Assembly: GCF_002234675.1 (NCBI RefSeq)
Contig: NC_019864.2
Coordinates: forward strand, 20,028,582 to 20,092,581
Length of the DNA: 64,000 nucleotides
Direction: 5' to 3'
Origin: Oryzias latipes
Lineage: Eukaryota > Chordata > Actinopteri > Beloniformes > Adrianichthyidae
The notes below the pieces were generated by a model. The model did no database searches. It saw only the letters and a list, made by a program, of their open reading frames with translations, and was not told the DNA's origin. This document shows positions 9,201-59,500 of this stretch, piece by piece (the first letter of the stretch is position 1; each line of letters starts with the position of its first letter). The position numbers and the translations under genes were made by a program.

Positions 9201-10271
9201 TTAGGATGTAGACTATGTGAGTCTGGGGTGTGTCTTGGTTTGTCTATAATTGGCACACACTTTCTTTTCTGCCACAACTCCTCAACCAAGACTTTAACCA
9301 GTTCTCGACAGGGGTCTTGGTCTCGCCTGTCCTGCAACTCGCCTTTACGAGGGCAGACACTGTCCACCCAGGATGAAGTAAATTCTCTTGTCCTCCCCTC
9401 CCAGGGTAAGCAGGACAAACTTGTGATCTGTGATCTCACAAATAAGCAGACAGAGGTTCTTCCACTTTGTTCAGAGGTTCTTGCTCCTGCAAATGGAGTT
9501 AATGGTTTACACCAAGCCCAAAGAACGCTACCTCTACCTACACCTCCAAGTCCACCACTGAAAGCCAAAAGCCCCATTGAGCCTCAACTGCTGTCCCTGG
9601 ATAGCTTATGTGTGGAGACCGATTCTACCAAGGACTTTCGTCCCCCATCTCCCATAAATCTTTCCCGCAGTATTGACCAAGCTCTTTTCAGTGAGTCTTT
9701 ATTTTCTCACAGTATTTTTGGTCAACAAAGGCTATTCCATTCCTCTTCAAGTGCTTCTTTGAGCGCTCCTGGACAAGGTACAATAAATCTTGGGCTTAGC
9801 TCTGTGGGACATGCGTTTTACAGAACGTCATCCTGTGGAGATGTTGAGCAAGAGAACAATGTGTCTAACTTTCAAAATTCCCTCCCACAAGGACATTTGA
9901 CATCTCACAGCCATCTCACAGTTTCTCCAGAGAAAAATAACTGGAAGGGAAGTGACACAGGTTCAACCCAAGGGTTGTGCAGCTATCCCAAGGACAGTGG
10001 AAAGTCACATACTCATTCCTGGGGTAACAGGGGGCAAAACTTTGCACAAAGCAGTCTCCAAAGAGGAATCCCTCACTTATCTTACCGCAGGCATTACAGA
10101 ACCCTGAGTCTGGCCTCCCAAGATGGTCAAGGTGGCGGGAAGTTAGCAGGCACCAAACACCTCAGTGAAAGTCGACAGCTGGAATGGGATCTGGCTGTAC
10201 AAGCAGAGTTTGTCAATGTGTGCAAACAAATTGATACACTTAGTGTTTGCAGTGATACTATTGAATTGTAG
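6300..10271 (+). CDS. prrt4: Proline-rich transmembrane protein 4-like
   Basis: Two coding exons, 6300-7056 and 8200-10271, join in phase (donor agag|gtaag, acceptor tttcag) to give 942 residues, close to the usual PRRT4 size. The chosen start is the first ATG (6300), just before a hydrophobic signal-like segment (residues about 7-24); the exon acceptor is at 6193. Residues 25-330 form a Ser/Thr/Pro-rich ectodomain with several NxS/T sites. About seven hydrophobic segments follow, near residues 333-355, 364-385, 400-421, 444-468, 474-497, 545-567 and 590-610. The long tail is Ser-rich and probably cytoplasmic. The name rests on this layout and on the neighbouring impdh1, as in human. PRRT3 is the main alternative. 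Its molecular function is poorly known. A 15-nt A tract follows shortly after the stop codon. Confidence 0.85.
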
Positions 10272-20170: not shown

Positions 20171-20506
20171 AACAGAGGAGCAAAGTGCTTTATGGTAAGG
20201 AGTCCCATTCATCTATGCACACACACATTCACACACTGTTGGTGACAGAGCTGCCATGCAAGGCGCTAACCAGACCACTAGGAGCATTGTGTTTTTCAGG
20301 TTCTTGCCTAAAGACATTTAGACACATGGGCAGATAAAACAGAGGAGGTTCTCACAAGCCCTATTTTGTTAGTTATGTCTAAAGTCTATGGGATTAACGC
20401 CAAATCGAGTCCCAAGTCTTTTGCTGGAATTTTAAGTCAGTTTTCAAGTCCTAAAACTTTAGATAAAAAAAACCATTTTATTTTAATAAATTGTATCTAA
20501 AATAAC

Positions 20507-21741
20507 CACCACACAATGAAGCTGTGGGAAAGAGTAGTGGAAGCCAGGCTTAGGAAGAAGGTGGAGATCTGTGAGCAGCAGTATGGTTTCATGCCCCGTA
20601 AGAGCACCACTGATGCCATTTTTGCTTTGAGAATGTTGATGGAAAAGTACAGAGAAGGTCAGAAGGAGCTGCATTGTGTGTTCGTAGATTTAGAGAAGGC
20701 GTATGACAGGGTGCCGAGGGAGGAGCTGTGGTACTGTATGAGGTCGTCTGGAGTGGCAGAGAAGTATGTCAGAGTAGTTCAGGACATGTATGAGAGAAGT
20801 ATGACGGTGGTGAGATGTGCTGTAGGTCAGACAGAGGAGTTCAAGGTGGAGGTGGGACTACACCAAGGATCAGCTTTGAGTCCTTTTTTGTTTGCTATGC
20901 TGATGGACAGGCTGACAGACGAGGTAAGACAGGAATCTCCCTGGACAATGATGTTTGCGGATGACATTGTAATTTGCAGTGAGAGTAGAGAGCAGGTGGA
21001 GGAACAGCTAGAGAGGTGGAGGTTTGCTCTGGAAAGAAGAGGCATGAAGGTCAGTCATAGTAAGACAGAATACATGTGTCTGAACGAGAGGGATCAAGGT
21101 AGAAGCGTTAGGTTACAGGGGGCTGAGGTGAAGAAGGTGCAGGAGTTTAAGTACTTGGGGTCAACAGTTCAGTGTGATGGGGAGTGTGGAAAAGAGGTGA
21201 AGAGGCGAGTGCAGGCAGGTTGGAGCGGGTGGAGGAAAGTGTCAGGAGTGTTGTGTGACAGAAGAGTGCCAGCAAGACTCAAAGGAAAGGTGTACAAGAC
21301 AGTGGTGAGACCAGCTCTGCTCTATGGGTTAGAGACGGTAGCAGTGAGACAGAGACAAGAGGGTGAGATGGAGGTAGCGGAGATGAAGATGTTGAGGTTC
21401 TCCTTAGGAGTGACCAGGTTAGACAGGATAAGGAACGAGTACATCAGAGGGACGGCTCATGTTGCCTGTGTTAGGGACAAAGTCAGAGAAGCCAGACTGA
21501 GATGGTTTGGACATGTTCAGAGGAGGAATAGTGGATATATTGGTAGAAGGATGTTGGAGATGGAGCTGCCTGGCAGGAGGGCAAGAGGACGGCCAAAGAG
21601 GAGATATATGGATGTCTTAACAGAGGACATGAAGTTGGCTGGTGTTAGGGTAGAAGATGTCCATGATAGAGTGAGGTGGAGGACGATGATTCGCTGTGGC
21701 GACCCCTGATGGGAAAAGCCGAAAGAGAAAGAAGAAGAAGA
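20507..21741 (+). mobile_element. 5'-truncated RTE-type LINE with target duplication
   Basis: The element holds one intact open frame (20516-21709, 397 residues) covering the reverse transcriptase core and the C-terminal region. It contains the palm motif FADDIV, preceded by LHQGSALSPFLFAMLMDRL, and later GRPKRR. Its 3' end reads cgctgtggcgacccctgatg and then a ga(a)-rich tail. The 14-bp target duplication gtatctaaaataac flanks it at 20493-20506 and 21742-21755. The endonuclease and N-terminal RT are missing, so it cannot be autonomous. The intact frame suggests a young insertion. Confidence 0.9.
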
Positions 21742-26065: not shown

Positions 26066-26133
26066 AATGCAATGTATGTATGCAATGTCACTGAAATGTA
26101 TTCAGCACACAAGAGTGGCATTAAACAAACTGG

Positions 26134-26174
<41 letters not shown>

Positions 26175-26280
26175 TTTCGGCATCATCATAATCAAAACAC
26201 CACTGGAAGTGCTTTTAAAGAAGATGATTGGTGTAGATCTTTATTTGCAAGATGAAGCATGCATAGATTGAGGGTATACA
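26066..26280 (+). pseudogene. Relic of a RIPK-like gene copy
   Basis: The segment 26066-26133 is a decayed match to exon 7 of RIPK-like gene A (30824-30906): aatg..., gtcactgaaa, atgtattca, acacaagagtgg and aaactggtaaaa in the same order. After a (TA)n run, 26180-26280 matches the upstream region of gene A (28170-28280; gctttta..aagatgattgg, gatctttatttgcaagatga and atgcatagatt). Everything in between (upstream kinase exons and the CARD) is gone, so this is a fused remnant of an older gene copy. Confidence 0.65.
26142..26171. repeat. (TA)n microsatellite
   Basis: An uninterrupted AT dinucleotide run of about 30 bases sits between the two halves of the RIPK-like relic. Confidence 0.95.
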
Positions 26281-26783
26281 CAAACATTTTCAGGAAATCA
26301 AAACATGTACTCTTGATTCCTTATTTCTTTTTCTTGCCGTGTATTGGACTTTCCTCTAAGACTAAGATAAGTTTGAAGCTGCTTATGCAAATGGGGAATC
26401 CAGTTTCGCAGTAACAGGCATGACGCTGCAAAACTATTGTTTTATTTTAGGGATGTTCCTGCTCATGCGTTGTGAGCAACTGACAAATTCAATGCTGTGA
26501 TATTTTCTCTTTATGGGACATGGATAGATGGTGGAAATTGTCTTTATTTATAACACATGCAGTTTTGAAATACCTTAATTTAAAGCCTTTAACTTATTGT
26601 ATAAGTTCGCAAAATATTAAAAATATAAAGATTATTGCAATAGACTTACATTTTCATATACATATATTTGGGTTTTAATGTCAGCTTTCAGTCAATGATG
26701 AATACAAAATTAAGACAGTAGAGTGTAAAGGTCTGTTAGTATTTGTATTTCCTTGTCGAAATGATTTCTTGGAAATTCATTCA

Positions 26784-28059: not shown

Positions 28060-28330
28060 TTCTCCATGACAACAGTCCCACCTTCGGGCGAATTTCCGAT
28101 GAACTACTACTACTCTGAAGAAACTATGTTCTAGAAAGCAACACAGTTTTTTTTATTTTTGGCTAGAAACGACATAATCATAATTAAAAGACCGCTGGAA
28201 GTGCTTTTACAAAAGATGATTGGAGCGGATCTTTATTTGCAAGATGAAACATGCATAGATTTAGGGTGTACACAAACCCTTTTTGCTAAGTTATCTGCAA
28301 AATCTGTCATAGGGAAGTACTTGTGGCTTG
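28060..28330 (+). promoter_or_regulatory. Duplicated upstream segment of RIPK-like gene A
   Basis: This segment, 420-690 bp before the gene A start codon, is shared with relics at 19975-20170 and 26180-26280. It probably holds promoter or 5' leader sequence of the ancestral duplicated unit. No TATA box or transcription start could be fixed. Confidence 0.4.
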
Positions 28331-28749: not shown

Positions 28750-31700
28750 ATGGCGGTTGAGAAGAGAAAAGGTAAGCTTTGCAATAAAAAAAACAACGCA
28801 CAGCAGATGTTAGTTCAGTGCGAAAAAGAGGAGAGAGGTGGGTAAAGAGAACACTGTCCATTGTATAAAAATATGATTCTGTTTTCTTTTCGTTTTAGGC
28901 TCTTGTGGGTTCAAGGTGATGGGACTACTGAACCCTAAAGCTTTTGATAATGAACACTTAGAAAAATGGGAGTTAATTGGCATTGGGGGATTTGGTCACG
29001 TTTTCAAAGTCAAACATAAAAAAATGGGGCATGATGTGGCCATTAAGCTGCTTGATTCTTCTGATTGGTAATTCAACAACTTTCTGGATACAGTATTTGT
29101 TTTAAATTTCTTGTTCTTTATTTACAATATCATGTAGCAACAGACTGCAATCTTCTTCCAGCCTTGACATGGAAGGGGCACTGTTTAAGGAGGCCAAGTA
29201 TCTTGAAACATCATCATCCGACTATGTCCTGAGGATCTACGGAATTTATGAAGGAATCCCCCCTTTCTCTAAAGCAAAGTTACAAACCAAGGGGATAGTC
29301 ACAGAGTTCATGCGAAGAGGATCTATTGAGACCCTACAGAAGCAACTGAATTGCACTCCACCAGTGCCTCTAGCCTTTCGTTTGGCTCATGAAGTGGCTT
29401 TAGGAATAAACTTCCTCCATTCGATGGGTATTTTACACCGTGATCTAAAGCCAAGCAATGTAATGCTGAGTGAAAGCCTTAATGTAAAGGTAAAACACAG
29501 TGACGAAAAGTGTGAGTTTATAATGATACAATTATTTTTTAAATTTCCACCGTTGTATTTTGTAGCTGGCAGACTTTGGTCTGAGCACACAGTCTACCAG
29601 TGCCAACACCAGCAATGAAGAAAAAGCAGCACATGGAGGCTCACTCAAGTACATGCCACCTGAAGCTTTTGAAGCAAACTATACACCTTCACGTTCCTAT
29701 GACATTTACAGGTAAATGTTCAATCAGACCTATTGCAAATGTTGTTCACAAATGTGCTGTTTGTAACTGAAATCTGCTGTTTTCATTTATCAGCTTTGGA
29801 ATCCTTGTGTGGTCCATCTTTACTGGAGAACAACCTTATAAAGGTATAGATTTAAATGTACGGTTAACTACCATCCTCATTCAACTTACCTCTAATTATT
29901 CATTGTTCTGGCGATAAGATGCCTTGGAATTTGTGGTGAAGATGAAAGTACCCGAGGGCCAAAGACCTCCCCTTGATCAACTGTTTGTGGAAAATAAAGA
30001 ACAGTTGGAGGAGCTGAAAACCTTCATCTGCCAGTGCTGGGAAGGGGAGCCATCAAAGAGGCCAACAACTAAAAGCATGTATTCGTGCCAAACATAAACA
30101 TTTTTTCACAAGTACATTTTTAGGACAATTGTAGGTAATACTTTCTTTTCATTGCACTTAAGGGGTAAGTACCAAGTAATATTCAAGTGAACAAACCTAG
30201 GATTTAGTAATGAAATTACCATGTAGTTGAGTGGAAATTGGGCTGACTTTCTTTTACAGACCAGTTTCATTGTACTTAAGGGGTAGTTTCTGTGGTAAAA
30301 TCATGGTTAATACCATGAAACATACGAGTGCAGACCTAAAGGTCAAGGTCCTTTATTTGTACTTACCTTGTTCTTTCATGTGGTAAGTACCACAAAAGAC
30401 ACCTTTGCACAACATGTTAGTACCCAATAAGTATATTATAAATACCCAGTATCTACCACATATGTATGAACCAAATAGTACCACAGAAATACACAGTAAG
30501 TACCATGTAAGTACAGAGTAGACACATAAAAGTACCATGTAAGTACAGAGTAGACACATAAAAGTACCATGTAAGTACCCAGTAAGTCACATAAAAAGTA
30601 CCATGTAAACACACTGTAAGTACCCAGAAAATTCCATAAAAAGAACCATATAAATACCCCTTAAGTACACTGTAAGTACTGTACTGTAAAAGAAAGCGTT
30701 ACCCAATTGTATTACTAGTGTTTTTTCAACATGTGGAAAATGCCAAAAATTGTCCAGTCTAAAATTTGGATGCAAATGTTTGCTGGATATTGCTCGTAAC
30801 ATGTATTGATTTTTGTCCTATAGAATGCATTGGAGTCACTGAAAAAATGTATTCAATACACAAGAATGGGATTAATCATGCTGTCTATCAAGTCTTTGAA
30901 AAACTGGTAAAAACAAAGTTTAAAAAAAAAAAATAAAAATAAAAAACAGGGACTGATGAGTCAATACTTGTTCTTAATCTTCCTGGGTATGGCATGCACT
31001 GTAGGACTCAGTAAAGTCTGAACCTCCTGAAGCAAGCGTGGAACCCAGTTTAGCTGAAGCAACAGGTATGTTGTTCAGTTTTATTTTTATTATATTTTAA
31101 TTTGGCTAATTTCTGCTTATGCCTTGGGAGCCACTGAAAACTAAATAACAATATGTTTTCTTGTTAGGTAATGGGGAGAATGGTGTAGATCGCCCTGGGT
31201 TTACAACACAGGTAGTTTTAAAACACTTTGTCTAAAGTTTTAAACTAGTTATACAAGCTTTCAGAATTTGAATATTAAAACATATGTTCTCTGTTGACAT
31301 CAGCTATCTGTAGCTGATGGCAGAAAAAATGTGGATCACAAAGGTCTGTCAGCATTTGTTTTTCGTTTTCAAATTAATTTCTTTTTAAATTGTTTGGATA
31401 TTTTCATAATACTTTTTTTTTTTCAAACAGCAAACTTTGTTGACAGGAACAGAGCAAGTTTGATCAAATCCACCACCAAGGTGATGGAAATAGTTGAAGA
31501 GCTTGGAGACATGGTTCAGCCAGAAGCCTGTTCATTCATCAAAGTACAAAAAACGAGCCACATGCAGATGACAGAGCTGTACAGCGGACCATTACATTCA
31601 GGAGGGAAACAGGTTAAAGCAGCATTTTATGACGCCCTCAAAAAGCATGAGCCACAACTGGTTAAAGAACTTGGTACGATTTTCCGTGTTTGTCCCATTT

Positions 31701-31913
31701 ACCTGTTTGTCTTTTACAAGTCATTCAAGGTATTAATTGTGCTTTCTCTTTCTCAGGTAACAGTTTTAACTGATGAAAATTGTTTTATTTTTCATGAACT
31801 AAAGTTGCAGAGCTTCTCCAAGATGTTCCTTTTACTTTTAACTACTGTGGATCATCTTTAATAAGTATTTTTGTGTTCCAGATTTGAAAAATGCATCAAT
31901 AAATTCAAACTGA
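28750..31913 (+). CDS. RIPK3-like kinase with C-terminal CARD (gene A)
   Basis: Twelve exons keep one frame, 457 residues: 28750-28771, 28899-29067, 29162-29489, 29566-29711, 29794-29843, 29919-30074, 30824-30906, 31005-31065, 31168-31211, 31304-31343, 31431-31673 and 31882-31913. The kinase domain (about 30-300) has an intact glycine loop GIGGFGHV (35-42), VAIK lysine 57, HRDLK (Asp158) and DFG (176-178), with PPE in place of APE. It most resembles RIPK3. A short acidic linker (319-366) has no visible RHIM. Residues 367-448 form a CARD of the type found in fish ASC, caspase-1 and NLRP1 (FVDRNR start, LYSGPLHSGG, AAFYDALKKHEP). RIPK2 also pairs kinase and CARD, but its catalytic motifs differ. 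Exon 6 needs a GC donor. A poly(A) signal AATAAA lies at 31999. A signalling role in inflammation or cell death is inferred. Confidence 0.85.
30340..30700 (+). repeat. GTAAGTAC-rich imperfect repeat in gene A intron 6
   Basis: Imperfect tandem units built on taccatgtaagtac / cacataaaagtacc fill this part of the intron. GTAAGTAC-type motifs occur at least seven times. Each looks like a strong 5' splice site. The array lies just downstream of the GC donor at 30075. Confidence 0.8.
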
Positions 31914-33329
31914 ACTTTTTGCTACTGACCGATTGTCCTGTTTGCTGTTTAAGTAAAGATACTGGAATCAGAATCAGACTCTGGGTAAGATCAGTACAAA
32001 TAAAATTTTGTTGTTTTTGATTGTGAAAGAGCAGATCAGTAGAGTGAGGTAAAATAGATCTTGTGCCAAGACTATGTAGCTGCGTTAACTTATTGCTACT
32101 CTTCCAGCTCCAAAGGGTCTGTCTATCTTAACTGTTGACCTTGGATGGAAAACATGTATAGAAAGAAAAATAAGCAGTTGGCTTTAAAAAGATGAAAACA
32201 CCAAAGCATGAAGTTGTTATTTGAACTTTATCCAAAGTGGTAAGACAACAGGAATAACCAGGCAAGTCATGGCAAGCTTCAACAAAAACCCCTTCACAAC
32301 ATTTTTATCTTCAAATTGAATTCTGACTTGTGGTTTTAGGTGTAAGTCTTTTTGTATCCAAAATAAAAAAAGTTTTTTTAGAGACCAAAATGATGGTGTT
32401 TATATTAGATCTACAACTGGCAAAACTTATGTAACACAAGACATGATTAAAATTGTAAAGTAACATGGGAAATCAAATGTCTGACCAGGAAATTGTTGTA
32501 CAATAGTTCTTTTCATTGTTCTATAGTGCCATCTTTGTTTTTACTTTACATTTGTGTGAATGCATAGGGGAAACAGTGTGTGACATACACATACTGTGTT
32601 TAGTGAAGGGACTCCACAAATATTTAGAACAAATCTATATTCTACTTCTGTTATTATAGAGTATCTGACAGGTCAATTGACACAATACTCCAGTAGAATT
32701 TTGTTAAATAACCTTGTTCGTGCAATGTGAATACATTCTAGTGAATACAATCAGATGGAAATCACACTTTTAACAGTAACAGACAAGAAAAACATGACAA
32801 CACACCCTCAAACCAGAAAGACTGCAATCACACCAACCAAGTCTGTTTAAAAAACAAACAGACACACAGTCTTATTTTAATTTAAAATAATTTAAACAAA
32901 GGCAGATCCCCACTAAATAACAAATGATTCAACATAAAAGCATACATTTTCATGATACAGCAGTGATTTTTTCTGAATTACTGGTTACCATATCTGTCTC
33001 ATAAAATATTCTGGAAGTCTAGATTGTAAGACTTTGTAACAGCTTGTTACAGTTACAGAGTAAAAAGTATAGTAAACTCAATACTTTTCATGTGTATTAT
33101 TTTTACAGTAAATGAAACACCTTTCTATACATTGTTGTAAGTTAATAGGTATTTGACAATTTTTTATTTCATGTTTTATTGAAAGAATTTTGAGGAGGTT
33201 TGAAAACTGTGACAATGTTTCTATAAAATCCAGAACATTCGCAGCCTTAGTGGATTAAACCATCTGAGGGGGGAAAAAGGAATATTGTGAAAACTTTGAA
33301 GAACTTTTAAATAACAAATACACATGTGC
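31914..33329. other. Intergenic spacer between convergent RIPK-like genes A and B
   Basis: No exon recognised. It should carry the 3' UTRs of both genes. A minus-strand AATAAA at 33174-33179 could serve gene B. Confidence 0.5.
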
Positions 33330-35498
33330 TTAAGAAGAGCAAAGGTTCATCAGCAGCTCTGGCTCATGCTTTTTAAGGGTGTCATAAAACGCTGCTTTGA
33401 CCGGTGTTCCTCCTGAATGTAGGGGTCCATCCCAGAACTCGATCATCTTCTTGTAGCTTGTGTTTTGTTCTTCAATTTCTGCGTAGGCCTCTCTGTGGAC
33501 CATGTCTCCAAGCTCTTTGACGATTAACATTATCTTGGTGGTTTTTTGTAGTAAATCTGTCATCTTGCTGTCAACAAAGTTGGCTTTTTGTAGAAAAGAA
33601 TAAAAGAAGAATAAAAGAAGGCAAAAAAGAAAGAAAAAGGAGAACTTAACAGATATATTTTCAAATGTGCAAAAAGATTGGACACACACATACCTTTTGC
33701 ATCATCTGTCAGATCACGCTGTTATATGAGAAATATAAAAATCCATCAGTAAATTAAACAAATTCACAAAATTTGTTCTTAGAAGTGGAGAGATGTTTAT
33801 GAAGGAAAACCTGTGATGGAGGTGCAGGGTGATCTACAGTATCATTTGAATGTTTCGGAGGCTCACAGGTGATGCCGTCCTAAAAGAACAATTTGATAAA
33901 AAGAAATAACTTTTTTTTTTTTGCTTTTTAGTTAGTGGTTGTTATTCCAAAAAGTTGTAAATATCGTGTTTCTCACCAGCTTCTTTAAAACCATGTAGAC
34001 CTCGTCATGTATTTTGTGTTCATGCTTCAAGTACACGTTCTCAGTCGGGGAAATTATGTCTTGGTGATTTTGATTATTGAAGGATGCATTGGGTAAGAAG
34101 AAATAATATGATTAAATAAAAAAGATCAATGCTTGGCAGAACTGGAAAATCCCAGTTATGTTGGAAAGACACTGAAATATGTGAAGATAAAACTGAATAT
34201 ATTAATGGTTTTTATGATCTCATACCTTTAAACGTTGGCCTTTTTGATGGATCACCTTCCCAGCACTTCTGCATTAGATCGAGGAGATCTTTCATTCCTG
34301 CTGTATCCTTCTTTAAGTCCTCAAGAGTGGGTCTCTGACCTTTTTTGACACATTTTCGCACTTGAACTGAACCAGCACCTTAATTTTGAAAACAACAAAA
34401 GGCACAGAAGTGTAAATTTGTTTAATAGGAGCTACTTCACAATAGATCTTTCATTCCCTTTATATATTTTTGCAATATATGTACTCTTGAAAATGAAATG
34501 CTTGAATTTACCTGGATAAGGTTCTTCTCCAGAAAGAATGGCCCAGAGAAATATACCGAAGCTGATGAAGACAAAAAATATATACTTGTGAAGAAAAGAA
34601 GGAAGAAAAAAAAAAAGGTCAAAGTAATGCATAGTCTTTAAAGCATCTCTAAAAAATAAATTTGCAAATATTTTGAACAAATACATTTATTCAGCCATAT
34701 TTACCTATACACATCGAAAGAACGAGCAGGTTTGTAGTTTAAATTATCAAAAGCTTCAGGTGGCATGTACTTCAGTGTGCCTGCATTCTCTGTTTCTTCT
34801 TGATTGTTGGGGCTATAGGTGATTGACACAGCACACAGACCAAAATCTGCCAGCTGAAGAAATACATGACAAAAAACTGTATGTAACCTTTATATTTATA
34901 CTTATAAATCCATTTTTACTTTAAGGCATTTTACCTTTGCATGAAGTTCATCAGACAGCATTACATTCTCTGGTTTTAAATCTCGGTGCAGGAAACCCTC
35001 GGAGTGAAGGAAATTCATTCCTAAAGCCACTTCCTGGATCAAACGGCAGGTTAGTGCAAACGGTGGAGGACCTGACAACTTTCCGCAAAGAGTCTTTATA
35101 GATCCTCTTTTCATGAACTCCATGACCATTCCTTTTTGCCTGATTTGTTCAGTTGGTGGGGTTCCCTCATACATGCCATAAATCCTCAGGACATTTTGAC
35201 AGGAGAACACCTTTTGAAATTTAGCCTCCTGCAACAGTGACTTCTCCACGCTGCACAGGAAAATGTTTTGAAGTATTTTTTAGTAGACTATAGGGAAAAT
35301 AAAGAAGCACATAAAGTTCATAATCACATTTTGGGAAGCAAAAATTTACCTGACATCATTAAGGAGCTTAATTGCCACATAGTGTCCCATTTTCTGATGC
35401 CTGGCCTTGTACACGTTGCCAAAGCCACCTTGGCCAATCGAAGTCCATTCCGACAAAGAGTCATCTTCAAACCTTTTAGGCTCCAGTTTATCTGCCAT
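33330..35498 (-). CDS. RIPK3-like kinase with C-terminal CARD (gene B)
   Basis: Nine exons join in frame to 415 residues: 35498-35350, 35250-34935, 34853-34705, 34561-34512, 34378-34226, 34059-33977, 33879-33811, 33718-33694 and 33583-33330. Exon boundaries and phases mirror gene A, including the 50-nt and 83-nt exons. The kinase domain has glycine loop GQGGFGNV (22-29), VAIK lysine 44, HRDLK (Asp140) and DFG (158-160), all intact. A short linker leads to the CARD from residue 332 (FVDSKM start, GPLHSGG, AAFYDTLKKHEP), ending LLMNLCSS. No RHIM is visible in the linker. The loop after DFG (NNQEETENAG) differs from gene A. A non-coding leader exon ends at 35614. All donors are GT. The gene appears functional by sequence. 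Confidence 0.87.
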
Positions 35499-39124: not shown

Positions 39125-40272
39125 AAGATGAATGTGCCTGACTCCACCTGCAGGTGGATCACAGACTTCCTGACGGACAGACAGCAGTATGTGAGGCTGG
39201 GGAAGCTCGTCTCAGATACTCGGACCACAAGCACCGGATCCCCCCAGGGCTGTGTCCTTTCACCCCTGTTACTCTCCCTGTACACAAACAGCTGCACAGC
39301 TGGTCACCTGTCTGTCAAACTCCTGAAGTTTGCTGACGACACCACACTCATCGGCCTCATCTCTGACGGAGATGAGTCGGCCTACAGGAGTTAAATAGCC
39401 AGGCTGGTGTCATAGTGCAGCGCTAACAACCTGGAGCTTAATGCTCTGAAGACAGTGGAGATGACAGTGGACTTGAGGAAGGCCCCAGCCCCCCTCCCCC
39501 CTGTCATCCTCTGTGACTCCCCGGTGACCTCTGTGGAGTCCTTCTGCTTCCTGGGAACCATCATCAGCCAGGACCTCAAGTGGGAGCAGAACATCAGCTC
39601 CATCACTAAGAAGGTCCAGCAGAGGATGTACTTCCTGAGGCAGCTGAAGAAGTTTCACCTCCCTGAAAAGATGCTGGTAGACTTTTACACCGCCATCATC
39701 GAATCCACCCTCACGTCCTCCATCACAGTCTGGTTCGCTGCGGCCACGGCCAGAGACAAGGCCAAGCTGCAACGCGTCATCCACTCAGCAGAGAAGGTGA
39801 TCGGCTGCCACCTCCCGTCTCTCCAGGAGCTGCACATCTCCAGGACCTGGAGGCGGGCAGCCAGGATTGTAGCCAACCCCTCTCATCCAGGACATAATCT
39901 CTTTCGGCCCCTCCCTTCTGGCAAGAGGCTCCGGTCCATCAGGACCAGGACCTCGCGCCACAAGAACAGCTTCTTCCCCACTGCAGCCAGCCTGCTGAAC
40001 AGAACCCCAACTCCCCCAGGTGACCCCCCCTCCACCCCCCGCCCACCAAAGGACTGTCGGTGCCACTTACAGGCCCCACCATCCCAGCCCATCTGTGCTC
40101 CCACTTTAATTCACCTTACTCTACTGTATATAGTGTGTTGTTGTTGTTAACTTAATTTTTAACTTATTCTTAATTGCACTATACACCAAGTCAAATTCCT
40201 CGTTTTGTAAAGTGCGCTCTACTGAACCTGGCAATAAAACTTTTTCTGATTCCTGATTCTGATTCTGATTCT
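39125..40272 (+). mobile_element. L2-type LINE 3' fragment, unit 1
   Basis: Reverse transcriptase pieces translate with TGSPQGCVLSPLL and FADDT (active-site YADD-like motif), a WxSANNLELN-like stretch, and the C-terminal CHLPSLQEL and LPSGKRLRSI motifs. It ends in a (TGATTC)n tail typical of L2 elements (40243-40272). Stop codons split the frame (for example at 39392 and 39412). The 231-codon open piece 39455-40150 is the C-terminal part. The N-terminal RT and endonuclease are absent. Confidence 0.85.
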
Positions 40273-41628: not shown

Positions 41629-42300
41629 TCAAAAAAAAATAGTTTTGCCATTGTCTTGCAGCTCGCAGATCAAGTGGTTTAGTTTTCCAGTAATGTCAGT
41701 CAAGAATGCAAGTTCAGATTCACAATGTTCATATTCACCATATTCAACAGACATCTCCTCCAATAGCACCTTAAAAATCCTGTGCTGTTTTGCTTTGCAG
41801 CTGAGGTTGTTTACGATTTTCAGAATAAGAGTCATTATATGTCCAGAGCCAATCACTTCTGCACATAAGGCCTGCTGGTGAATGACGCAGCAGTAATGCA
41901 GACATTTTGGAAAGTCTTGGTCAGCTTTACAGTGAGTGATGAAACCTGTTTGTCTATTGATCATAGCAGGAGTCCCATCTGCAGTCACTGCTACCAGCTT
42001 TTCTAATTGTACCTTTTTCTGCACAAAAACTCCTTCACCGTGTTATACATTTCAACTCCTCTTGTAGTTGTCTGTTAGGGCAGATGTGTCAGGAGTTCTT
42101 CTCTTGTGGAAACCAAAAGCTATGCTGTACTGTTGCCGTCCACAGACTCATCACACTGGACGTTAACCACCTGCACTTTGCAAGATCCCGGTCCAGCTAA
42201 TTGGCCAAGTTATCAGACATAGCTGACACTCATCTAGACATTGTAGTGGAAATTGAATGATTTCTATTGTTCTCATCCTTAGGGACAGTGATAGCAATTA
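41629..42300 (-). pseudogene. hAT (ZBED/Charlie-like) transposase fragment, unit 1
   Basis: The minus strand keeps an open 131-codon piece (42024-41629) with AVTADGTPAMINRQTGF, CVIHQQALCAEV and VNNLSCKAKQHRIFK motifs. These are typical of the middle of hAT-Charlie transposases and of domesticated relatives such as GTF2IRD2/ZBED proteins. The preceding part (to about 42300) is recognisable in shifted frames with stops. It lacks the N-terminal zinc finger and the C-terminal dimerisation domain. Confidence 0.8.
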
Positions 42301-45653: not shown

Positions 45654-46697
45654 AAGATGAATGTGCCTGACTCCACCTGCAGGTGGATCACAGACTTCCT
45701 GACGGACAGACAGCAGTATGTGAGGCTGGGGAAGCTCGTCTCAGATACTCGGACCACAAGCACCGGATCCCCCCAGGGCTGTGTCCTTTCACCCCTGTTA
45801 CTCTCCCTGTACACAAACAGCTGCACAGCTGGTCACCTGTCTGTCAAACTCCTGAAGTTTGCTGACGACACCACACTCATCGGCCTCATCTCTGACGGAG
45901 ATGAGTCGGCCTACAGGAGTGAAATAGCCAGGCTGGTGTCATAGTGCAGCGCTAACAACCTGGAGCTTAATGCTCTGAAGACAGTGGAGATGACAGTGGA
46001 CTTGAGGAAGGCCCCAGCCCCCCTCCCCCCTGTCATCCTCTGTGACTCCCCGGTGACCTCTGTGGAGTCCTTCTGCTTCCTGGGAACCATCATCAGCCAG
46101 GACCTCAAGTGGGAGCAGAACATCAGCTCCATCACTAAGAAGGTCCAGCAGAGGATGTACTTCCTGAGGCAGCTGAAGAAGTTTCACCTCCCTGAAAAGA
46201 TGCTGGTAGACTTTTACACCGCCATCATCGAATCCACCCTCACGTCCTCCATCACAGTCTGGTTCGCTGCGGCCACGGCCAGAGACAAGGCCAAGCTGCA
46301 ACGCGTCATCCACTCAGCAGAGAAGGTGATCGGCTGCCACCTCCCGTCTCTCCAGGAGCTGCACATCTCCAGGACCTGGAGGCGGGACCTCGCGCCACAA
46401 GAACAGCTTCTTCCCCACTGCAGCCAGCCTGCTGAACAGAACCCCAACTCCCCCAGGTGACCCCCCCTCCCCCCCCGCCCACCAAAGGACTGTCGGTGCC
46501 ACTTACAGGCCCCACCATCCCAGCCCATCTGTGCTCCCACTTTAATTCACCTTACTCTACTGTATATAGTGTGTTGTTGTTGTTAACTTAATTTTTAACT
46601 TATTCTTAATTGCACTATACACCAAGTCAAATTCCTCGTTTTGTAAAGTGCGCTCTACTGAACCTGGCAATAAAACTTTTTCTGATTTCTGATTCTA
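45654..46697 (+). mobile_element. L2-type LINE 3' fragment, unit 2
   Basis: Nearly identical to the unit 1 copy, with FADDT kept. It has the 92-bp deletion between aggcggg and acctcgcg (junction near 46386), which shifts the frame. It ends in a shorter TGATTC tail. Confidence 0.85.
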
Positions 46698-48050: not shown

Positions 48051-48940
48051 TCAAAAAAAAATAGTTTTGCCATTGTCTTGAGGCTCGCAGATCAAGTGGT
48101 TTAGTTTTCCAGTAATGTCAGTCAAGAATGCCAGTTTAGCTCGTGCTGGTTTGCGGCGCCTTCCATCCGTGAAACCTGGGTTCGACTCCGGGCTGCTCCC
48201 TGTTCCCTTCTCTACCTCTGCCGGTTCCAAGCCCGGTTTGAGAAGGTTGCGTCAGGAAGGGCATCCGGCGTAAAACATTGCCAAATTTACCATGCGACTT
48301 GTTCGCTGTGGCGACCCCTGATGGGAGAAGCCGAAAGTGGAAGAAGTCAGTCAAGAATGCAAGTTCAGATTCACAATGTTCATATTCACCATATTCAACA
48401 GACATCTCCTCCAATAGCACCTTAAAAATCCTGTGCTGTTTTGCTTTGCAGCTGAGGTTGTTTACGATTTTCAGAATAAGAGTCATTATATGTCCAGAGC
48501 CAATCACTTCTGCACATAAGGCCTGCTGGTGAATGACGCAGCAGTAATGCAGACATTTTGGAAAGTCTGGGTCAGCTTTACAGTGAGTGATGAAACCTGT
48601 TTGTCTATTGATCATAGCAGGAGTCCCATCTGCAGTCACTGCTACCAGCTTTTCTAATTGTACCTTTTTCTGCACAAAAACTCCTTCACCGTGTTATACA
48701 TTTCAACTCCTCTTGTAGTTGTCTGTTAGGGCAGATGTGTCAGGAATTCTTCTCTTGTGGAAACCAAAAGCTATGCTGTACTGTTGCCGTCCACAGACTC
48801 ATCACACTGGACGTTAACCACCTGCACTTTGCAAGATCCCGGTCCAGCTAATTGGCCAAGTTATCAGACATAGCTGACACTCATCTAGACATTGTAGTGG
48901 AAATTGAATGAGTTCTATTGTTCTCATCCTTAGGGACAGT
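48051..48940 (-). pseudogene. hAT transposase fragment interrupted by a SINE, unit 2
   Basis: Same antisense transposase sequence as at 41629-42300, split by the SINE at 48132-48345. The SINE cuts the open frame just after the LAFLTD motif. Confidence 0.8.
48132..48345 (+). mobile_element. tRNA-derived SINE inserted only in unit 2
   Basis: A 214-bp copy of the same SINE as at 27381, with box B ggttcgactcc and the RTE-like tail. The 15-bp target duplication gtcagtcaagaatgc lies at 48117-48131 and 48346-48360. Units 1 and 3 show the empty site with one copy of this 15-mer, so the insertion followed the amplification. Confidence 0.95.
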
Positions 48941-51193: not shown

Positions 51194-52242
51194 AAGATGA
51201 ATGTGCCTGACTCCACCTGCAGGTGGATCACAGACTTCCTGACGGACAGACAGCAGTATGTGAGGCTGGGGAAGCTCGTCTCAGATACTCGGACCACAAG
51301 CACCGGATCCCCCCAGGGCTGTGTCCTTTCACCCCTGTTACTCTCCCTGTACACAAACAGCTGCACAGCTGGTCACCTGTCTGTCAAACTCCTGAAGTTG
51401 GCTGACGACACCACACTCATCGGCCTCATCTCTGACGGAGATGAGTCGGCCTACAGGAGTGAAATAGCCAGGCTGGTGTCATAGTGCAGCGCTAACAACC
51501 TGGAGCTTAATGCTCTGAAGACAGTGGAGATGACAGTGGACTTCAGGAAGGCCCCAGCCCCCCTCCCCCCTGTCATCCTCTGTGACTCCCCGGTGACCTC
51601 TGTGGAGTCCTTCTGCTTCCTGGGAACCATCATCAGCCAGGACCTCAAGTGGGAGCAGAACATCAGCTCCATCACTAAGAAGGTCCAGCAGAGGATGTAC
51701 TTCCTGAGGCAGCTGAAGAAGTTTCACCTCCCTGAAAAGATGCTGGTAGACTTTTACACCGCCATCATCGAATCCACCCTCACGTCCTCCATCACAGTCT
51801 GGTTCGCTGCGGCCACGGCCAGAGACAAGGCCAAGCTGCAACGCGTCATCCACTCAGCAGAGAAGGTGATCGGCTGCCACCTCCCGTCTCTCCAGGAGCT
51901 GCACATCTCCAGGACCTGGAGGCGGGACCTCGCGCCACAAGAACAGCTTCTTCCCCACTGCAGCCAGCCTGCTGAACAGAACCCCAACTCCCCCAGGTGA
52001 CCCCCCCTCCCCCCCCGCCCACCAAAGGACTGTCGGTGCCACTTACAGGCCCCACCATCCCAGCCCATCTGTGCTCCCACTTTAATTCACCTTACTCTAC
52101 TGTATATAGTGTGTTGTTGTTGTTAACTTAATTTTTAACTTATTCTTAATTGCACTATACACCAAGTCAAATTCCTCGTTTTGTAAAGTGCGCTCTACTG
52201 AACCTGGCAATAAAACTTTTTCTGATTTCTGATTCTGATTCT
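51194..52242 (+). mobile_element. L2-type LINE 3' fragment, unit 3
   Basis: As unit 2, with the 92-bp deletion. The active-site motif reads LADDT instead of FADDT (change near 51400), and the TGATTC tail is slightly longer than in unit 2. Confidence 0.85.
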
Positions 52243-53617: not shown

Positions 53618-54290
53618 TCAAAAAAAAATAGTTTTGCCATTGTCTTGCAGCTCGCAGATCAAGTGGTTTAGTTTTCCAGTAATGTCAGTCAAGAATGCAA
53701 GTTCAGATTCACAATGTTCATATTCACCATATTCAACAGACATCTCCTCCAATAGCACCTTAAAAATCCTGTGCTGTTTTGCTTTGCAGCTGAGGTTGTT
53801 TACGATTTTCAGAATAAGAGTCATTATATGTCCAGAGCCAATCACTTCTGCACATAAGGCCTGCTGGTGAATGACGCAGCAGTAATGCAGACATTTTGGA
53901 AAGTCTGGGTCAGCTTTACAGTGAGTGATGAAACCTGTTTGTCTATTGATCATAGCAGGAGTCCCATCTGCAGTCACTGCTACCAGCTTTTCTAATTGTA
54001 CCTTTTTCTGCACAAAAACTCCTTCACCGTGTTATACATTTCAACTCCTCTTGTAGTTGTCTGTTAGGGCAGATGTGTCAGGAGTTCTTCTCTTGTGGAA
54101 ACCAAAAGCTATGCTGTACTGTTGCCGTCCACAGACTCATCACACTGGACGTTAACCACCTGCACTTTGCAAGATCCCGGTCCAGCTAATTGGCCAAGTT
54201 ATCAGACATAGCTGACACTCATCTAGACATTGTAGTGGAAATTGAATGAGTTCTATTGTTCTCATCCTTAGGGACAGTGATAGCAATTAT
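53618..54290 (-). pseudogene. hAT transposase fragment, unit 3
   Basis: Uninterrupted 131-codon piece at 54013-53618 with the same motifs as unit 1, plus frame-shifted upstream remains. Confidence 0.8.
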
Positions 54291-55870: not shown

Positions 55871-56806
55871 TTTGCTCAGCTGTTGGACGGAACAAGTTAG
55901 AAGAAGAAATAGAGATTTAAGATTTAATTCACCAAGACCACCTATGAAGTCCAGACTTTGAAGTGTACAGTTTAATTTACATATCATATCTAAAAAGAAA
56001 AGAAGCATTTTTTGCCTTATTGCACAGCTGTCTTAAAAAAAACAGGCAAAGACGGGATCAGTATTATGGTCGATAATATTTGTAAACATTAGACCATACA
56101 CCTATGCAAATTACAAAAAAGGTGAAATAGTGTAAATAAAAAAGAAAGACAGGTATGCAGCAAAAAGAGCTATTGGAATAATGTACCAATGGTCAACCAC
56201 AATTTATTTTAAACTTATTTTATTTCTAGTATTACGGGGTTTTTTTATGCACGCTTCTATGACTGGTGACAATCATGAAAACAACAGTGGGTAACCTTTT
56301 GGATTCCTGCTTGGTCTACTGAAACCACAAATATTACAACTCATTTGCTCTGAACAAATATACATAAATAGGGGGGGGGGGGGGGGGGTCACTGAATTGA
56401 TGAAAAGAATGATGTTGAAGAGAAAGAGTTAGAAATGCTCTGACGCTTTTCTCCACATCTCCAGAGTACTCAAAATTACTGGAATTTGTCACCAGGAAGA
56501 AAAAAGAAAGTTCTATCTGGAATATTTTAATAACATAAGCAAAACATGCAAAGTTTCTTCACTAGTGTGTACAAAGGTAAAGAAAATAATGTTATGCAAA
56601 AAAATCTTTTTAAGCATGATCTGGAACAAAAGTGCATTTTCAAGGTTCCTGAAAATTGTGAAGCAATGCAAGCCAATCTGGTTTGTTATCCTATGGAGCT
56701 GTCTTAGATTAAGGCAAATTGACATTCCAGTCCTGAAAGAGAACAATGCAATATGAAGAAGAAATATTTATCAGACAGATTGATGAAGAAAAAAACAGTC
56801 ACTCAC
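55871..56806. other. Downstream of gene C exon 6, no exon recognised
   Basis: I searched the minus strand for the CARD start (an NFVD-like motif after an acceptor) and for the linker exons, and found neither. An 18-base G run lies at 56371-56388. Confidence 0.5.
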
Positions 56807-58482
56807 CAGTTTATCCAAAACCTGATAGACCACCTTGTTAATTTCTCGCTCATGCATTGGGAGCACCGTCTCAGTGCAGCCAATACACTCTAAAAAAATC
56901 ATTTTTGATACCAAAGGACATGTTTAAAACCTGTCATCTGAAATTTCTAGCAACATGAAAACAGTAATTGATGTTTAAACAAATAGTGCATATTCAATAT
57001 AAAATCTGCAACATTACTTCGTGTGTTCTTACACAGAATTTACGTATTTGTAAATGGAATACATACCATTAAATGTTGGTCTCTCCTTTGGATCTTCTTT
57101 CCAGCACTTCTGCATGAGATCTAGCAGATCTTTCATTCCCTCTGTATTTATCTTTGATAAGTCATCAAGAGAAGGTCTTTGACCCATAGGAACTTTTACT
57201 TCCACCAAGTCTGCAGGAATGCCTTTGTTTTCAAACAAGAAAAGCACAGAAGCAGAGATGAAGACACACATTTACAATGGGACAAATCTGTGTGATGGTC
57301 AGCTTCGTTGTAAAAGACAAAGTAAAAGCATGTTTTTAATACAATACAGTACAGTCTTGGAAAAAAATAAGTAAATAAAAATGAATTGGATTTAATTTAC
57401 CTTCATAAGGTTCTTTTCCAGAGAGGGTGGACCAGACAAGAATAGCAAAGCTAATGAACAAAGATAAAATATTTAATTGCGCCACTTTGTTTGTCGATAT
57501 TTTTGACTAAATGTTGACAATACAATTCAGAATTTTTTTTTGAAAACATGTACATCTGCAATGATTACCTGTATCTGTCAAAAGCACGACTAGGTTTATA
57601 GTTTAGATCAAAAGCTTCAGGTGGCATGTACTTCACTGTGCCTGCATTGTCTGTTGCTTCTTGATTGCTGGGATTGAAAGATATGGATTCGGTGCACAGA
57701 CCAAAGTCTGCCAGCTACAAAGTGAAGCAGAAAATATAACAATGAATAATTTGACACCATATATGTACGTATAAAATCAATTCATAATTTAATGCTTGTT
57801 ACCCTAGCATGAAGTTCATCAGACAGCATTACGTTCTGGGGTTTTAGGTCACGGTGCAGGATACCCAGAGAATGGAGGAAATTCATTCCAATGGCCACTT
57901 CATGGATCAAACGGCAGGCCAGTGGAAATGGCGGAGGACCTGACAATTTTTTCCAAAGAGTCTCAACAGATCCTCTCTTCATGAACTCCATCACCATTCC
58001 CATTTGTTTATTTCGTCCAAAAGGTGGGATTCCCTCATACATTCCATAGATTGACAGGACAAAGTTACAGGACAGCAGTTTAAGATAATTAGCCTCCTTC
58101 TTCACTTCCGCATCCATATCATTTCTGGAAAAAAGGCAGTAAACTCTTTAAAGCAGTGTAAAAAAATAAATAAACAAGCTGCTGCAGTGTACAATGGTCC
58201 TTGCGTTCCACCACTGCCCCACATGTCTCATCACTCATATTTGCCCCCAAAGAGGGGAAAAGAGAAAAAAATATTCTAATTAATTATATTATAATCTGCT
58301 TTTTTGTGAGTTTGAGCCATAAAGAACACATTTGGAATGATGTGAATTTACCCTTGGTGAATCAACTTGATGGCCACATCGTGTCCCATGTTCACGGCTT
58401 TGACTTTGTAGACACTACCGAACCCTCCTTGACCAATAGGCTCCCATGTATCCAAGCCGTCATTATGAAATTTCTTTTGCAT
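56807..58482 (-). CDS. RIPK3-like kinase without visible CARD (gene C)
   Basis: Six exons in frame, 296 codons before the last donor: 58482-58352, 58124-57803, 57714-57569, 57450-57401, 57222-57067 and 56889-56807. Exon pattern and phases match genes A and B. The kinase domain keeps glycine loop GQGGFGSV (17-24), VAIK lysine 39, HRDLK (Asp136) and DFG (154-156). The usual FGI at the start of the 50-nt exon reads FAI. The last exon ends in a good donor (aaactg|gtgagt), but no linker or CARD exon is seen down to the hAT element at 54.6 kb. Without splicing, the frame reads about 12 further codons to a stop. The product may be kinase-only, have a diverged tail, or be a decaying copy. The kinase residues argue against old decay. 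Confidence 0.75.
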
Positions 58483-59299: not shown

Positions 59300-59500
59300 G
59301 TTTTCTCAAGGGTGGCGGTGTTTAGGACCGGCATGCAGGAAACCAGGGTTTGCTTCACAGCGTGTGCAAAGAGATTATTCCAGTGTGAGTTCTTAGGCAA
59401 GACCCCTCACGCTGCTGGGTGCCATGAAAATACAGGGTTGCGTTTTAGGAAGGGCATCCAGTGTAAAATTCTTTACCAAACCACCATGGAATCTCAGGAC
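59300..59500 (+). repeat. Degenerate SINE-like copy
   Basis: ggtggcggtgtttaggaccg, then aaccagggtttgcttc (a decayed box B) and acagggttgcgttttaggaa with ggcatccagtgtaaa follow the layout of the tRNA-derived SINEs at 27.4 and 48.1 kb. They are too diverged for target duplications to be seen. Confidence 0.5.

What the first reader, a model, noticed from the sequence alone, without database searches (positions are those of the whole stretch)
28750..35498. RIPK3-like kinases joined to an inflammasome-type CARD
Genes A and B combine a kinase with RIPK3-like motifs (GGFG loop, HRDLKP, LADFGL) and a C-terminal CARD resembling those of fish ASC, caspase-1 and NLRP1. Mammalian RIPK3 has a RHIM and no CARD; RIPK2 has a CARD but different catalytic motifs. 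The shared exon phases show that the arrangement predates the A/B duplication. Such a protein could link CARD-mediated inflammasome assembly directly to RIP-kinase signalling. Function is inference.
Basis: partly seen in the sequence, partly recalled or inferred. Interest (0 to 1): 0.75.

Follow-up and report, generated by a model that had tools for sequence, protein, structure and literature searches.

The report
Fish RIPK3-derived kinases carrying a CARD
Medaka and many other fish carry kinases derived from the cell-death kinase RIPK3 in which the usual docking motif is replaced by a CARD, a connector typical of inflammasomes; this suggests, but does not yet prove, that fish wired a necroptosis-type kinase to inflammasome machinery.

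Summary
Confirmed, with corrections. The window is from a medaka (Oryzias). Gene B (minus strand, 9 coding exons, all introns GT-AG, 415 aa) and gene A (plus strand, 12 coding exons, 452 aa) each encode a kinase and a C-terminal CARD. Gene A joins the two only through a weak GC donor. A third copy, gene C (303 aa), has no CARD.
The kinase is RIPK3-derived: it sits in a ray-finned-fish RIPK3 clade (100/99) with RHIM-bearing fish RIPK3; grouping with human RIPK2 is rejected (p 0.015). The CARD is closest to zebrafish GBP, NLRP1 and ASC CARDs, not RIPK2's.
The architecture is widespread: 107 of the 120 hits listed (of 2065) carry the CARD; salmonids have a version; 20 of 22 species that I picked also have a RHIM-type RIPK3. 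Three related models carry PYDs. CARD-types keep the catalytic residues but mostly lack a Ser/Thr dyad near the MLKL-docking site.
Likely a CARD-triggered kinase at inflammasomes; partners and substrates are untested. Ten paper searches gave no description of it.

The parts
28750..31773 (+). Gene A, kinase-linker-CARD. Coding exons 28750-28771, 28899-29067, 29162-29489 (or from 29138), 29566-29711, 29794-29843, 29919-30074, 30824-30906, 31005-31065, 31168-31211, 31304-31343, 31431-31673, 31757-31770, then stop 31771-31773; 452 aa
   Evidence: Splice model; exon 3 start by comparison with P0012. P0012 reads through the last intron instead of using the final 14-base exon
29919..30074 (+). Gene A exon 6, end of kinase; its donor is GC (AAAA|GCATGT), the one non-canonical junction of A
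   Evidence: same junction in deposited O. latipes protein P0012
30824..30906 (+). Gene A exon 7, post-kinase helix that resembles the one in RHIM-type fish RIPK3
   Evidence: by eye
31431..31673 (+). Gene A CARD exon
33330..35498 (-). Gene B, kinase-linker-CARD. Coding exons 35498-35350, 35250-34935, 34853-34705, 34561-34512, 34378-34226, 34059-33977, 33879-33811, 33718-33694, 33583-33330 (stop included); 415 aa; all 8 introns GT-AG
   Evidence: 93% identical over its whole length to O. latipes P0002
33977..34059 (-). Gene B exon 6, post-kinase helix; modelled as one long helix (residues 272-303) in the homologue P0002
33330..33583 (-). Gene B CARD exon; helical bundle modelled at pLDDT 94.9
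56709..58482 (-). Gene C, related kinase without CARD, 303 aa, 7 coding exons, all 6 introns between them GT-AG
   Evidence: groups with O. melastigma P0013

Best explanation
Genes A and B belong to a ray-finned-fish family of RIPK3-derived kinases that lack the RHIM and carry instead a C-terminal CARD of the GBP/NLRP1/ASC class; RHIM-bearing RIPK3 persists as a separate gene. Most likely mechanism: an upstream CARD assembly (ASC speck, NLRP1 or a similar sensor filament) recruits the protein through CARD-CARD contacts. Crowding then lets the kinases activate in trans, as RHIM amyloid does for RIPK3. The active kinase then phosphorylates partners in or near that complex, more probably than MLKL through the usual RIPK3 docking serines. 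Shown: gene structure by splice model, ancestry of the kinase, class and modelled fold of the CARD, intact catalytic residues, coexistence with RHIM-type RIPK3 in other fish. Inferred: recruitment partner, activation by clustering, substrate, outcome (inflammasome control, NF-kB or lytic death).
For: Kinase: RIPK3 184 bits, RIPK1 153, RIPK4 150, RIPK2 115. Tree of 71 kinases: ray-finned RIPK3 clade 100/99 holding RHIM, CARD and PYD types; percomorph CARD clade 99/100; AU test rejects percomorph CARD clade + human RIPK2 (p 0.0147). The helix after the kinase looks alike in CARD-types and RHIM-types (by eye). CARD profile against PDB: zebrafish GBP 5.8e-22, rat NLRP1 1.7e-14, zebrafish ASC 2.9e-13; RIPK2 0.12 and partial. 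Modelled fold: GBP TM 0.94, zebrafish ASC 0.93, NLRP1 0.84-0.89, RIPK2 0.68-0.72. Equivalents of human RIPK3 Lys50, Glu60, Asp142 and Asp160 are present in 30 of 30 CARD-type rows. A Ser/Thr dyad in the segment of human Ser227: 41 of 48 RHIM-type, 9 of 95 CARD-type. Flounder RIPK3 without its RHIM-bearing end no longer causes MLKL-dependent death, and its Ser231/Ser232 mutant is weakened (PMC10825024, passages); that our dyad is those serines is my inference. A zebrafish GBP with a C-terminal CARD (GBP4) needs ASC (PMC9978379, passages); whether GBP4 is the 4irl protein was not checked.
Against: No interaction, expression or kinase-activity data for any member. Gene A depends on a weak GC donor. 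Foldseek of the full-length model ranks RIPK2 and RIPK1 structures first (RIPK2 TM 0.79-0.87 by target) and no RIPK3 structure is among the 50 listed, so the overall fold does not favour RIPK3. All-RIPK3 monophyly is not shown (holding it is not rejected, p 0.448, but the free tree puts mammalian RIPK3 with RIPK1). A linker motif (TG-PP-Q) found in 35 of 50 RHIM-type rows is absent by pattern from all 114 CARD-type rows, though by eye the two salmonid ones keep a variant. A CARD nearest to GBP/NLRP1/ASC by sequence need not bind their partners, and GBP genes are reported lost in medaka (PMC9978379). The dyad count rests on a pattern that could be extracted in 95 of 114 CARD-type and 48 of 50 RHIM-type rows.
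Confidence: 0.6

Rival explanations
1. A kinase-independent or inhibitory CARD protein: the CARD caps or decoys ASC/NLRP1 filaments, and the kinase domain is mainly a scaffold.
For: RIPKs often signal through their C-terminal domain (recalled); the HxD middle residue is variable in CARD-types; the Oryzias copies expanded and one in this window has no CARD, as fast-evolving regulators do.
Against: Catalytic Lys, Glu, HxD Asp and DFG Asp are kept in 30 of 30 CARD-type rows, which a pure decoy would not need.
Confidence: 0.18
2. A necroptosis kinase in the usual sense: CARD oligomers replace RHIM amyloid, but the kinase still phosphorylates MLKL.
For: Derived from RIPK3; RIPK3-MLKL necroptosis works in flounder (PMC10825024, passages).
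Against: The Ser/Thr dyad is found in 9 of 95 CARD-type rows against 41 of 48 RHIM-type; A has no Ser/Thr in that segment, B has one Ser.
Confidence: 0.13
3. A RIPK2 or RIPK2B orthologue acting below NOD1/2.
For: Kinase plus C-terminal CARD is the RIPK2 layout; a RIPK2B paralogue with kinase and CARD is reported in many vertebrates but not therian mammals (PMC12119088, passages); the full-length fold search ranks RIPK2 first.
Against: AU test rejects the percomorph CARD clade with human RIPK2 (p 0.0147); kinase bits 184 RIPK3 against 115 RIPK2; the CARD is not RIPK2-like. RIPK2B and fish RIPK2 were not in the tree.
Confidence: 0.05
4. Annotation artefact: neighbouring kinase and CARD genes wrongly joined, or decayed copies.
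For: Gene A's GC donor; no RNA data for this window.
Against: Gene B has 8 of 8 canonical introns in frame; 107 of the 120 listed hits carry the same layout; 20 of 20 short-contig proteins hold kinase and CARD.
Confidence: 0.04

Closest known systems
Fish RHIM-type RIPK3 (croaker Lc-RIP3, flounder PoRIPK3)
   Same: Kinase clade, helix after the kinase (by eye), catalytic residues
   Different: CARD instead of RHIM; HxD middle residue rarely Leu; Ser/Thr dyad mostly absent; a separate protein in 20 of 22 species checked
RIPK2 (and RIPK2B)
   Same: Layout: N-terminal RIP kinase, C-terminal CARD
   Different: Kinase not with human RIPK2 by tree and AU test; CARD not RIPK2-like. RIPK2B not compared
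Zebrafish GBP-NLRP1-like CARD (4irl), NLRP1 CARD, ASC CARD
   Same: Closest CARDs by sequence profile and modelled fold
   Different: There attached to a GTPase, an NLR with FIIND, or a PYD, not to a kinase (ASC layout recalled; GBP and NLRP1 layouts in PMC9978379, passages)
RIPK3-like kinases with PYD (Myxocyprinus P0134, Megalops P0163 and P0164)
   Same: Same ray-finned RIPK3 clade; a death-fold domain where RHIM-types have the RHIM half
   Different: PYD, not CARD; database gene models only; nearest rows are RHIM-type sequences of other teleosts and a Conger model, not the CARD-types

Membership tests
RIPK3 | Kinase domain groups with RIPK3 | tested here: met
   Ray-finned RIPK3 clade 100/99 with RHIM-type rows. 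A joint clade with tetrapod RIPK3 is not rejected (p 0.448) but not shown
RIPK3 | C-terminal RHIM | tested here: not met
   No RHIM-like tetrad pattern in A, B or C; none of 114 CARD-type rows matches the RHIM pattern
RIPK3 | MLKL-docking phosphosite near human Ser227 | tested here: inconclusive
   No Ser/Thr in A's segment; one Ser in B's; dyad in 9 of 95 CARD-type and 41 of 48 RHIM-type rows
RIPK3 | Active kinase residues | tested here: met
   Lys, Glu, HxD Asp, DFG Asp in 30 of 30 CARD-type rows, A and B among them
RIPK2 | Kinase groups with RIPK2 | tested here: not met
   AU p 0.0147 against; 115 bits against 184 for RIPK3. Only human RIPK2 was in the tree
RIPK2 | RIPK2-type CARD | tested here: not met
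   RIPK2 CARD E 0.12, partial; TM 0.68-0.72 against 0.94 for GBP; NOD1/2 binding not testable here
CARD (death-fold) domain | CARD fold | tested here: met
   Model pLDDT 94.9 with split first helix; the 13 best Foldseek hits are CARDs, TM 0.75-0.94
CARD (death-fold) domain | Reaches Pfam PF00619 | tested here: inconclusive
   A and B not reported at E 0.001 as whole proteins; 19 of 20 family CARDs match at E up to 1, B's does not
Inflammasome component | Binds ASC, NLRP1 or caspase CARD | not testable with these tools
   Needs binding or speck assays

The most novel reading that the evidence does not exclude
Ray-finned fish hold a family of RIPK3-derived death-fold kinases: RIPK3 copies repeatedly exchanged the amyloid RHIM for the two connector folds of ASC, CARD (percomorphs, salmonids) and PYD (tarpon, sucker). 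They thereby make a RIP kinase a direct part of inflammasomes, freed from MLKL docking, while the original RIPK3 gene was kept for necroptosis.
Probability: 0.45. Interest if true: 0.85.

Novelty: new variant of a known kind. Interest (0 to 1): 0.7.

Why it matters
RIPK3 needs its RHIM-bearing end for MLKL-dependent death in flounder (PMC10825024, passages) and in mammals (recalled). A RIPK3-derived kinase that signals from a CARD would join two pathways treated as separate, necroptosis and inflammasomes, in one protein, and gives a natural test of whether RIPK3 kinases need RHIM amyloid or only clustering. Databases label many of these proteins RIPK3 or RIPK3-like, so fish work may mix two different genes. 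A survey of RIPK1-7, with zebrafish as its teleost, assigns RHIM and CARD only to RIPK1/RIPK3 and RIPK2 (PMC9573974, passages).

Tried and rejected
RIPK2 membership: rejected by tree and AU test. Motifs as proof of RIPK3: rejected, since HxD differs within fish. A kinase-only explanation: rejected by CARD HMM, PDB profile and fold. A single origin of the percomorph and salmonid CARDs: undecided. The kinase tree joins the two groups at 61/59 only. The salmonid CARDs are no closer to the percomorph ones (mean 42.9% identity) than to the zebrafish GBP CARD (44.7%), which speaks for separate gains; the CARD tree of 82 columns leaves 18 of 29 inner branches open and does not reject one clade (p 0.351). 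The search for outside relatives of the Salmo CARD returned 9 proteins, the query included, all salmonid and all labelled RIPK3 or RIPK3-like, from only 27 candidates, so it says little about the donor. The TG-PP-Q linker motif as a general link between RHIM- and CARD-types: dropped, since 0 of 114 CARD-type rows match the pattern. Full-length fold search: not discriminating. The own-genome search did not complete, so copy number in this genome and a RHIM-type gene in it were not checked. RIPK2B and fish RIPK2 were not fetched. Fish caspase-1 CARD was not compared.

Counts and rows dropped: the homology listings are capped (120 shown of 2065, 120 of 1674). The CARD HMM was trained on 97 of the 114 rows it later called CARD, so only the other 17 (A and B included) are independent hits. 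The 71-row tree used a hand-chosen subset of the fetched proteins. The RHIM pattern is strict and missed diverged motifs: 26 of the 81 vertebrate rows first listed match neither pattern, and the two misses among the 22 species, Austrofundulus P0155 and Pleuronectes P0165, carry RHIM-like tails by eye. The 22 species were picked by me from names in the listings (some cut short there), not drawn from all species.
Full report
What is in the window. Homology puts it in a medaka, genus Oryzias (species not determined): gene A is nearly identical to an O. latipes protein (P0012) and gene B is 93% identical over its whole length to another (P0002). I built splice models directly from the sequence. 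Gene B, minus strand 35498-33330, has 9 coding exons, 8 of 8 introns GT-AG, 415 aa. Gene A, plus strand 28750-31773, has 12 coding exons. Ten of its eleven introns are GT-AG; the junction after exon 6 has a GC donor, AAAA|GCATGT, where B has AAAG|GTATG. If that donor fails, A ends after 20 intron bases as a 297 aa kinase without a CARD. P0012 and the O. melastigma protein P0009 read across the same junction, but both are database models. Comparison with P0012 also moves A's exon 3 start to 29162, giving 452 aa. All eight intron phases of B (2,0,2,1,1,0,0,1) recur in A in order.

A third copy. tblastn of A and B against the window found gene C, minus strand 58482-56709: 7 coding exons, 6 of 6 introns GT-AG, 303 aa, ending just after the post-kinase helix with no CARD. 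It groups with O. melastigma P0013 (100/100). Chance-level traces near 26087 and 59483 (tblastn E 9.5 and 1.2) may be decayed copies.

The kinase. Against solved structures B scores RIPK3 184, RIPK1 153, RIPK4 150, RIPK2 115 bits. Two homology searches (120 shown of 2065 and of 1674) listed mainly fish proteins labelled RIPK3 or RIPK3-like, some RIPK4-like or ANKK1-like; the lower end is unrelated kinases. In a tree of 71 kinase domains (276 columns, IQ-TREE) the ray-finned sequences form one clade (100/99). It holds RHIM-type RIPK3 of percomorphs (100/100, with two models bearing other domains), RHIM-type of salmonids, Esox, Dallia, Coilia, Amia and Prochilodus, PYD-type sequences, a salmonid CARD pair, and a percomorph CARD clade (99/100) in which A, B and C form an Oryzias group (100/100). 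AU tests: percomorph CARD clade with human RIPK2, rejected (p 0.0147); CARD-types with tetrapod RIPK3 to the exclusion of fish RHIM-types, rejected (p 0.0261); all RIPK3-like as one clade, not rejected (p 0.448), though the free tree places mammalian RIPK3 with RIPK1 on long branches. So the kinase comes from a fish RIPK3, not from RIPK2.

The linker. Directly after the kinase, CARD-types and RHIM-types show a similar helix of the form VTExxFxKHKxGIxxAVxxVLxKLDS (read by eye). A TG-PP-Q motif farther on occurs in 35 of 50 RHIM-type rows and in two of the three PYD-type rows but in 0 of 114 CARD-type rows by the same pattern; by eye the two salmonid CARD-types keep a variant, TGSLPPTQ or TGSLSPTQ. 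I read this as a CARD standing where the RHIM half used to be, with the percomorph linker since diverged.

The CARD. By single sequence the best solved match is a zebrafish GBP CARD, then NLRP1 and ASC. A profile of 20 family CARDs gives zebrafish GBP 5.8e-22, rat NLRP1 1.7e-14, zebrafish ASC 2.9e-13, other NLRP1 entries 1e-12 to 9e-11, other ASC entries 1e-9 to 7e-7, and RIPK2 0.12 over part of its length; caspase-1 is not among the 34 sequences listed. AlphaFold2 on B's CARD gives pLDDT 94.9 and a bundle of helices with a split first helix; Foldseek: GBP TM 0.94, zebrafish ASC 0.93, NLRP1 0.84-0.89, CARD8 0.83-0.87, RIPK2 0.68-0.72, with E below 0.001 only for the two GBP chains. The full-length homologue P0002 models at pLDDT 86.6 with kinase, a long helix 272-303, a low-confidence stretch 308-323 and the CARD; its first 18 fold matches are RIPK2 or RIPK1 kinases and no RIPK3 structure is in the 50 listed. 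I count that as undiscriminating, but it is not in favour.

How widespread. Of the 120 hits listed in one search, 107 carry the CARD by HMM and 13 do not: 12 Oryzias models (truncated, kinase-only or otherwise without a CARD) and one Limanda model. Of the 81 vertebrate rows first listed in one search (P0121-P0201), 50 match a RHIM pattern, 5 the CARD, 26 neither; no protein has both. For 22 species picked from the listings, 20 have one CARD-type and one RHIM-type protein, and the other two have RHIM-like tails that my pattern missed. Nine salmonid kinase-CARD proteins of Salmo, Salvelinus, Oncorhynchus and Hucho, the query included, were found with the Salmo CARD. Twenty proteins whose only source is 'lgn' have a longest contig of 1368-2210 bases, of which a 415-469 aa kinase-CARD coding sequence fills 59-92%. 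Medaka genes of this type are split by introns, so these are probably transcripts; the source is unnamed, so I do not call it proof.

One or several gains. The salmonid CARDs are no closer to the percomorph CARDs (mean 42.9% identity) than to the zebrafish GBP CARD (44.7%), and neither tree settles it. Separate gains are therefore open.

Other connectors. Pfam finds two PYRIN stretches each in P0134 (Myxocyprinus) and P0163 (Megalops), and CARD in both salmonid proteins scanned; P0164 (Megalops) carries the precomputed PYRIN label. The tree needs two label changes for PYD. One Sander model has SPRY, one Etheostoma model is joined to an NLR, and one tuna model has two CARDs. These are annotation models and may include false joins.

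What it probably does. The catalytic Lys, Glu, HxD Asp and DFG Asp are present in 30 of 30 CARD-type rows, so the kinase is likely active. In flounder, RIPK3 without its RHIM-bearing end causes no MLKL-dependent death, and mutating Ser231/Ser232 weakens it (PMC10825024, passages seen). A Ser/Thr dyad in that segment is found in 41 of 48 extractable RHIM-type rows but 9 of 95 CARD-type rows. I therefore favour a kinase gathered by a CARD filament and acting on other substrates. Zebrafish GBP4, which ends in a CARD, needs ASC, and GBP genes are reported lost in medaka (PMC9978379, passages), so ASC and NLRP1-like proteins are the first partners to test. All of this last step is inference.

Literature. 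Ten library searches were answered: nine with various terms for RIPK3, CARD, PYD, teleost, medaka, croaker and duplication and one on GBP CARDs. Neither the listings nor the passages that I read describe a CARD- or PYD-bearing RIPK3. PMC8533023 (passages) describes croaker RHIM-type RIP3 and lists a medaka RIP3 of 481 aa. PMC12119088 (passages) surveys vertebrate RIPKs and reports RIPK2B, but in the passages shown no CARD-bearing RIPK3. PMC9573974 (passages) assigns RHIM and CARD only to RIPK1/RIPK3 and RIPK2. PMC7179693, PMC11932488 and PMC11507063 (passages) mention none in what was shown. The library lacks most subscription journals, so absence in print is not shown. The proteins themselves are in public databases, many with CARD already marked by Pfam.

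Verdict. It should not be filed as RIPK3 proper (no RHIM) nor as RIPK2; it is a RIPK3-derived CARD kinase.

Noticed in passing
56709-58482 (-): Gene C: intact-looking 303 aa RIPK3-type kinase of the same family that ends before any CARD, as in O. melastigma P0013.
   Followed up: yes
26087-26290 and 28170-28282; 59483-59572: Possible decayed copies: a linker-exon-like stretch (tblastn E 9.5, chance level) beside a 113-base direct repeat (87% identical) of sequence upstream of gene A; and a chance-level kinase-like stretch upstream of gene C (E 1.2).
   Followed up: partly
30140-30700: Intron 6 of gene A holds degenerate repeats of a 'gtaccatgtaagta'-like unit (by eye).
   Followed up: no
20501-21709 (+): Reverse transcriptase ORF of 402 aa (PF00078), a LINE-type element.
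   Followed up: partly
39416-40150, 45945-46460, 51485-52000 (+): Three near-identical retroelement-like ORFs; the first, the only one scanned, matches PF09004 (named ALKBH8_N).
   Followed up: partly
41629-42042, 48136-48693, 53618-54031 (-): Three near-identical ORFs interleaved with the former set, resembling hAT-type transposase/GTF2IRD2-like proteins (recalled); no Pfam match for the one scanned.
   Followed up: partly
8079-10271 (+): 730 aa ORF with several hydrophobic segments, reminiscent of proline-rich transmembrane proteins PRRT3/4 (recalled); no Pfam match.
   Followed up: partly
P0134, P0163, P0164: RIPK3-like kinases with C-terminal PYDs in Myxocyprinus and Megalops models.
   Followed up: partly
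RHIM-type fish RIPK3 rows: RHIM-type fish RIPK3 reads HLD, not HRD, in 48 of 50 rows, as typed human RIPK4 does (HLN in the PDB chain).
   Followed up: no
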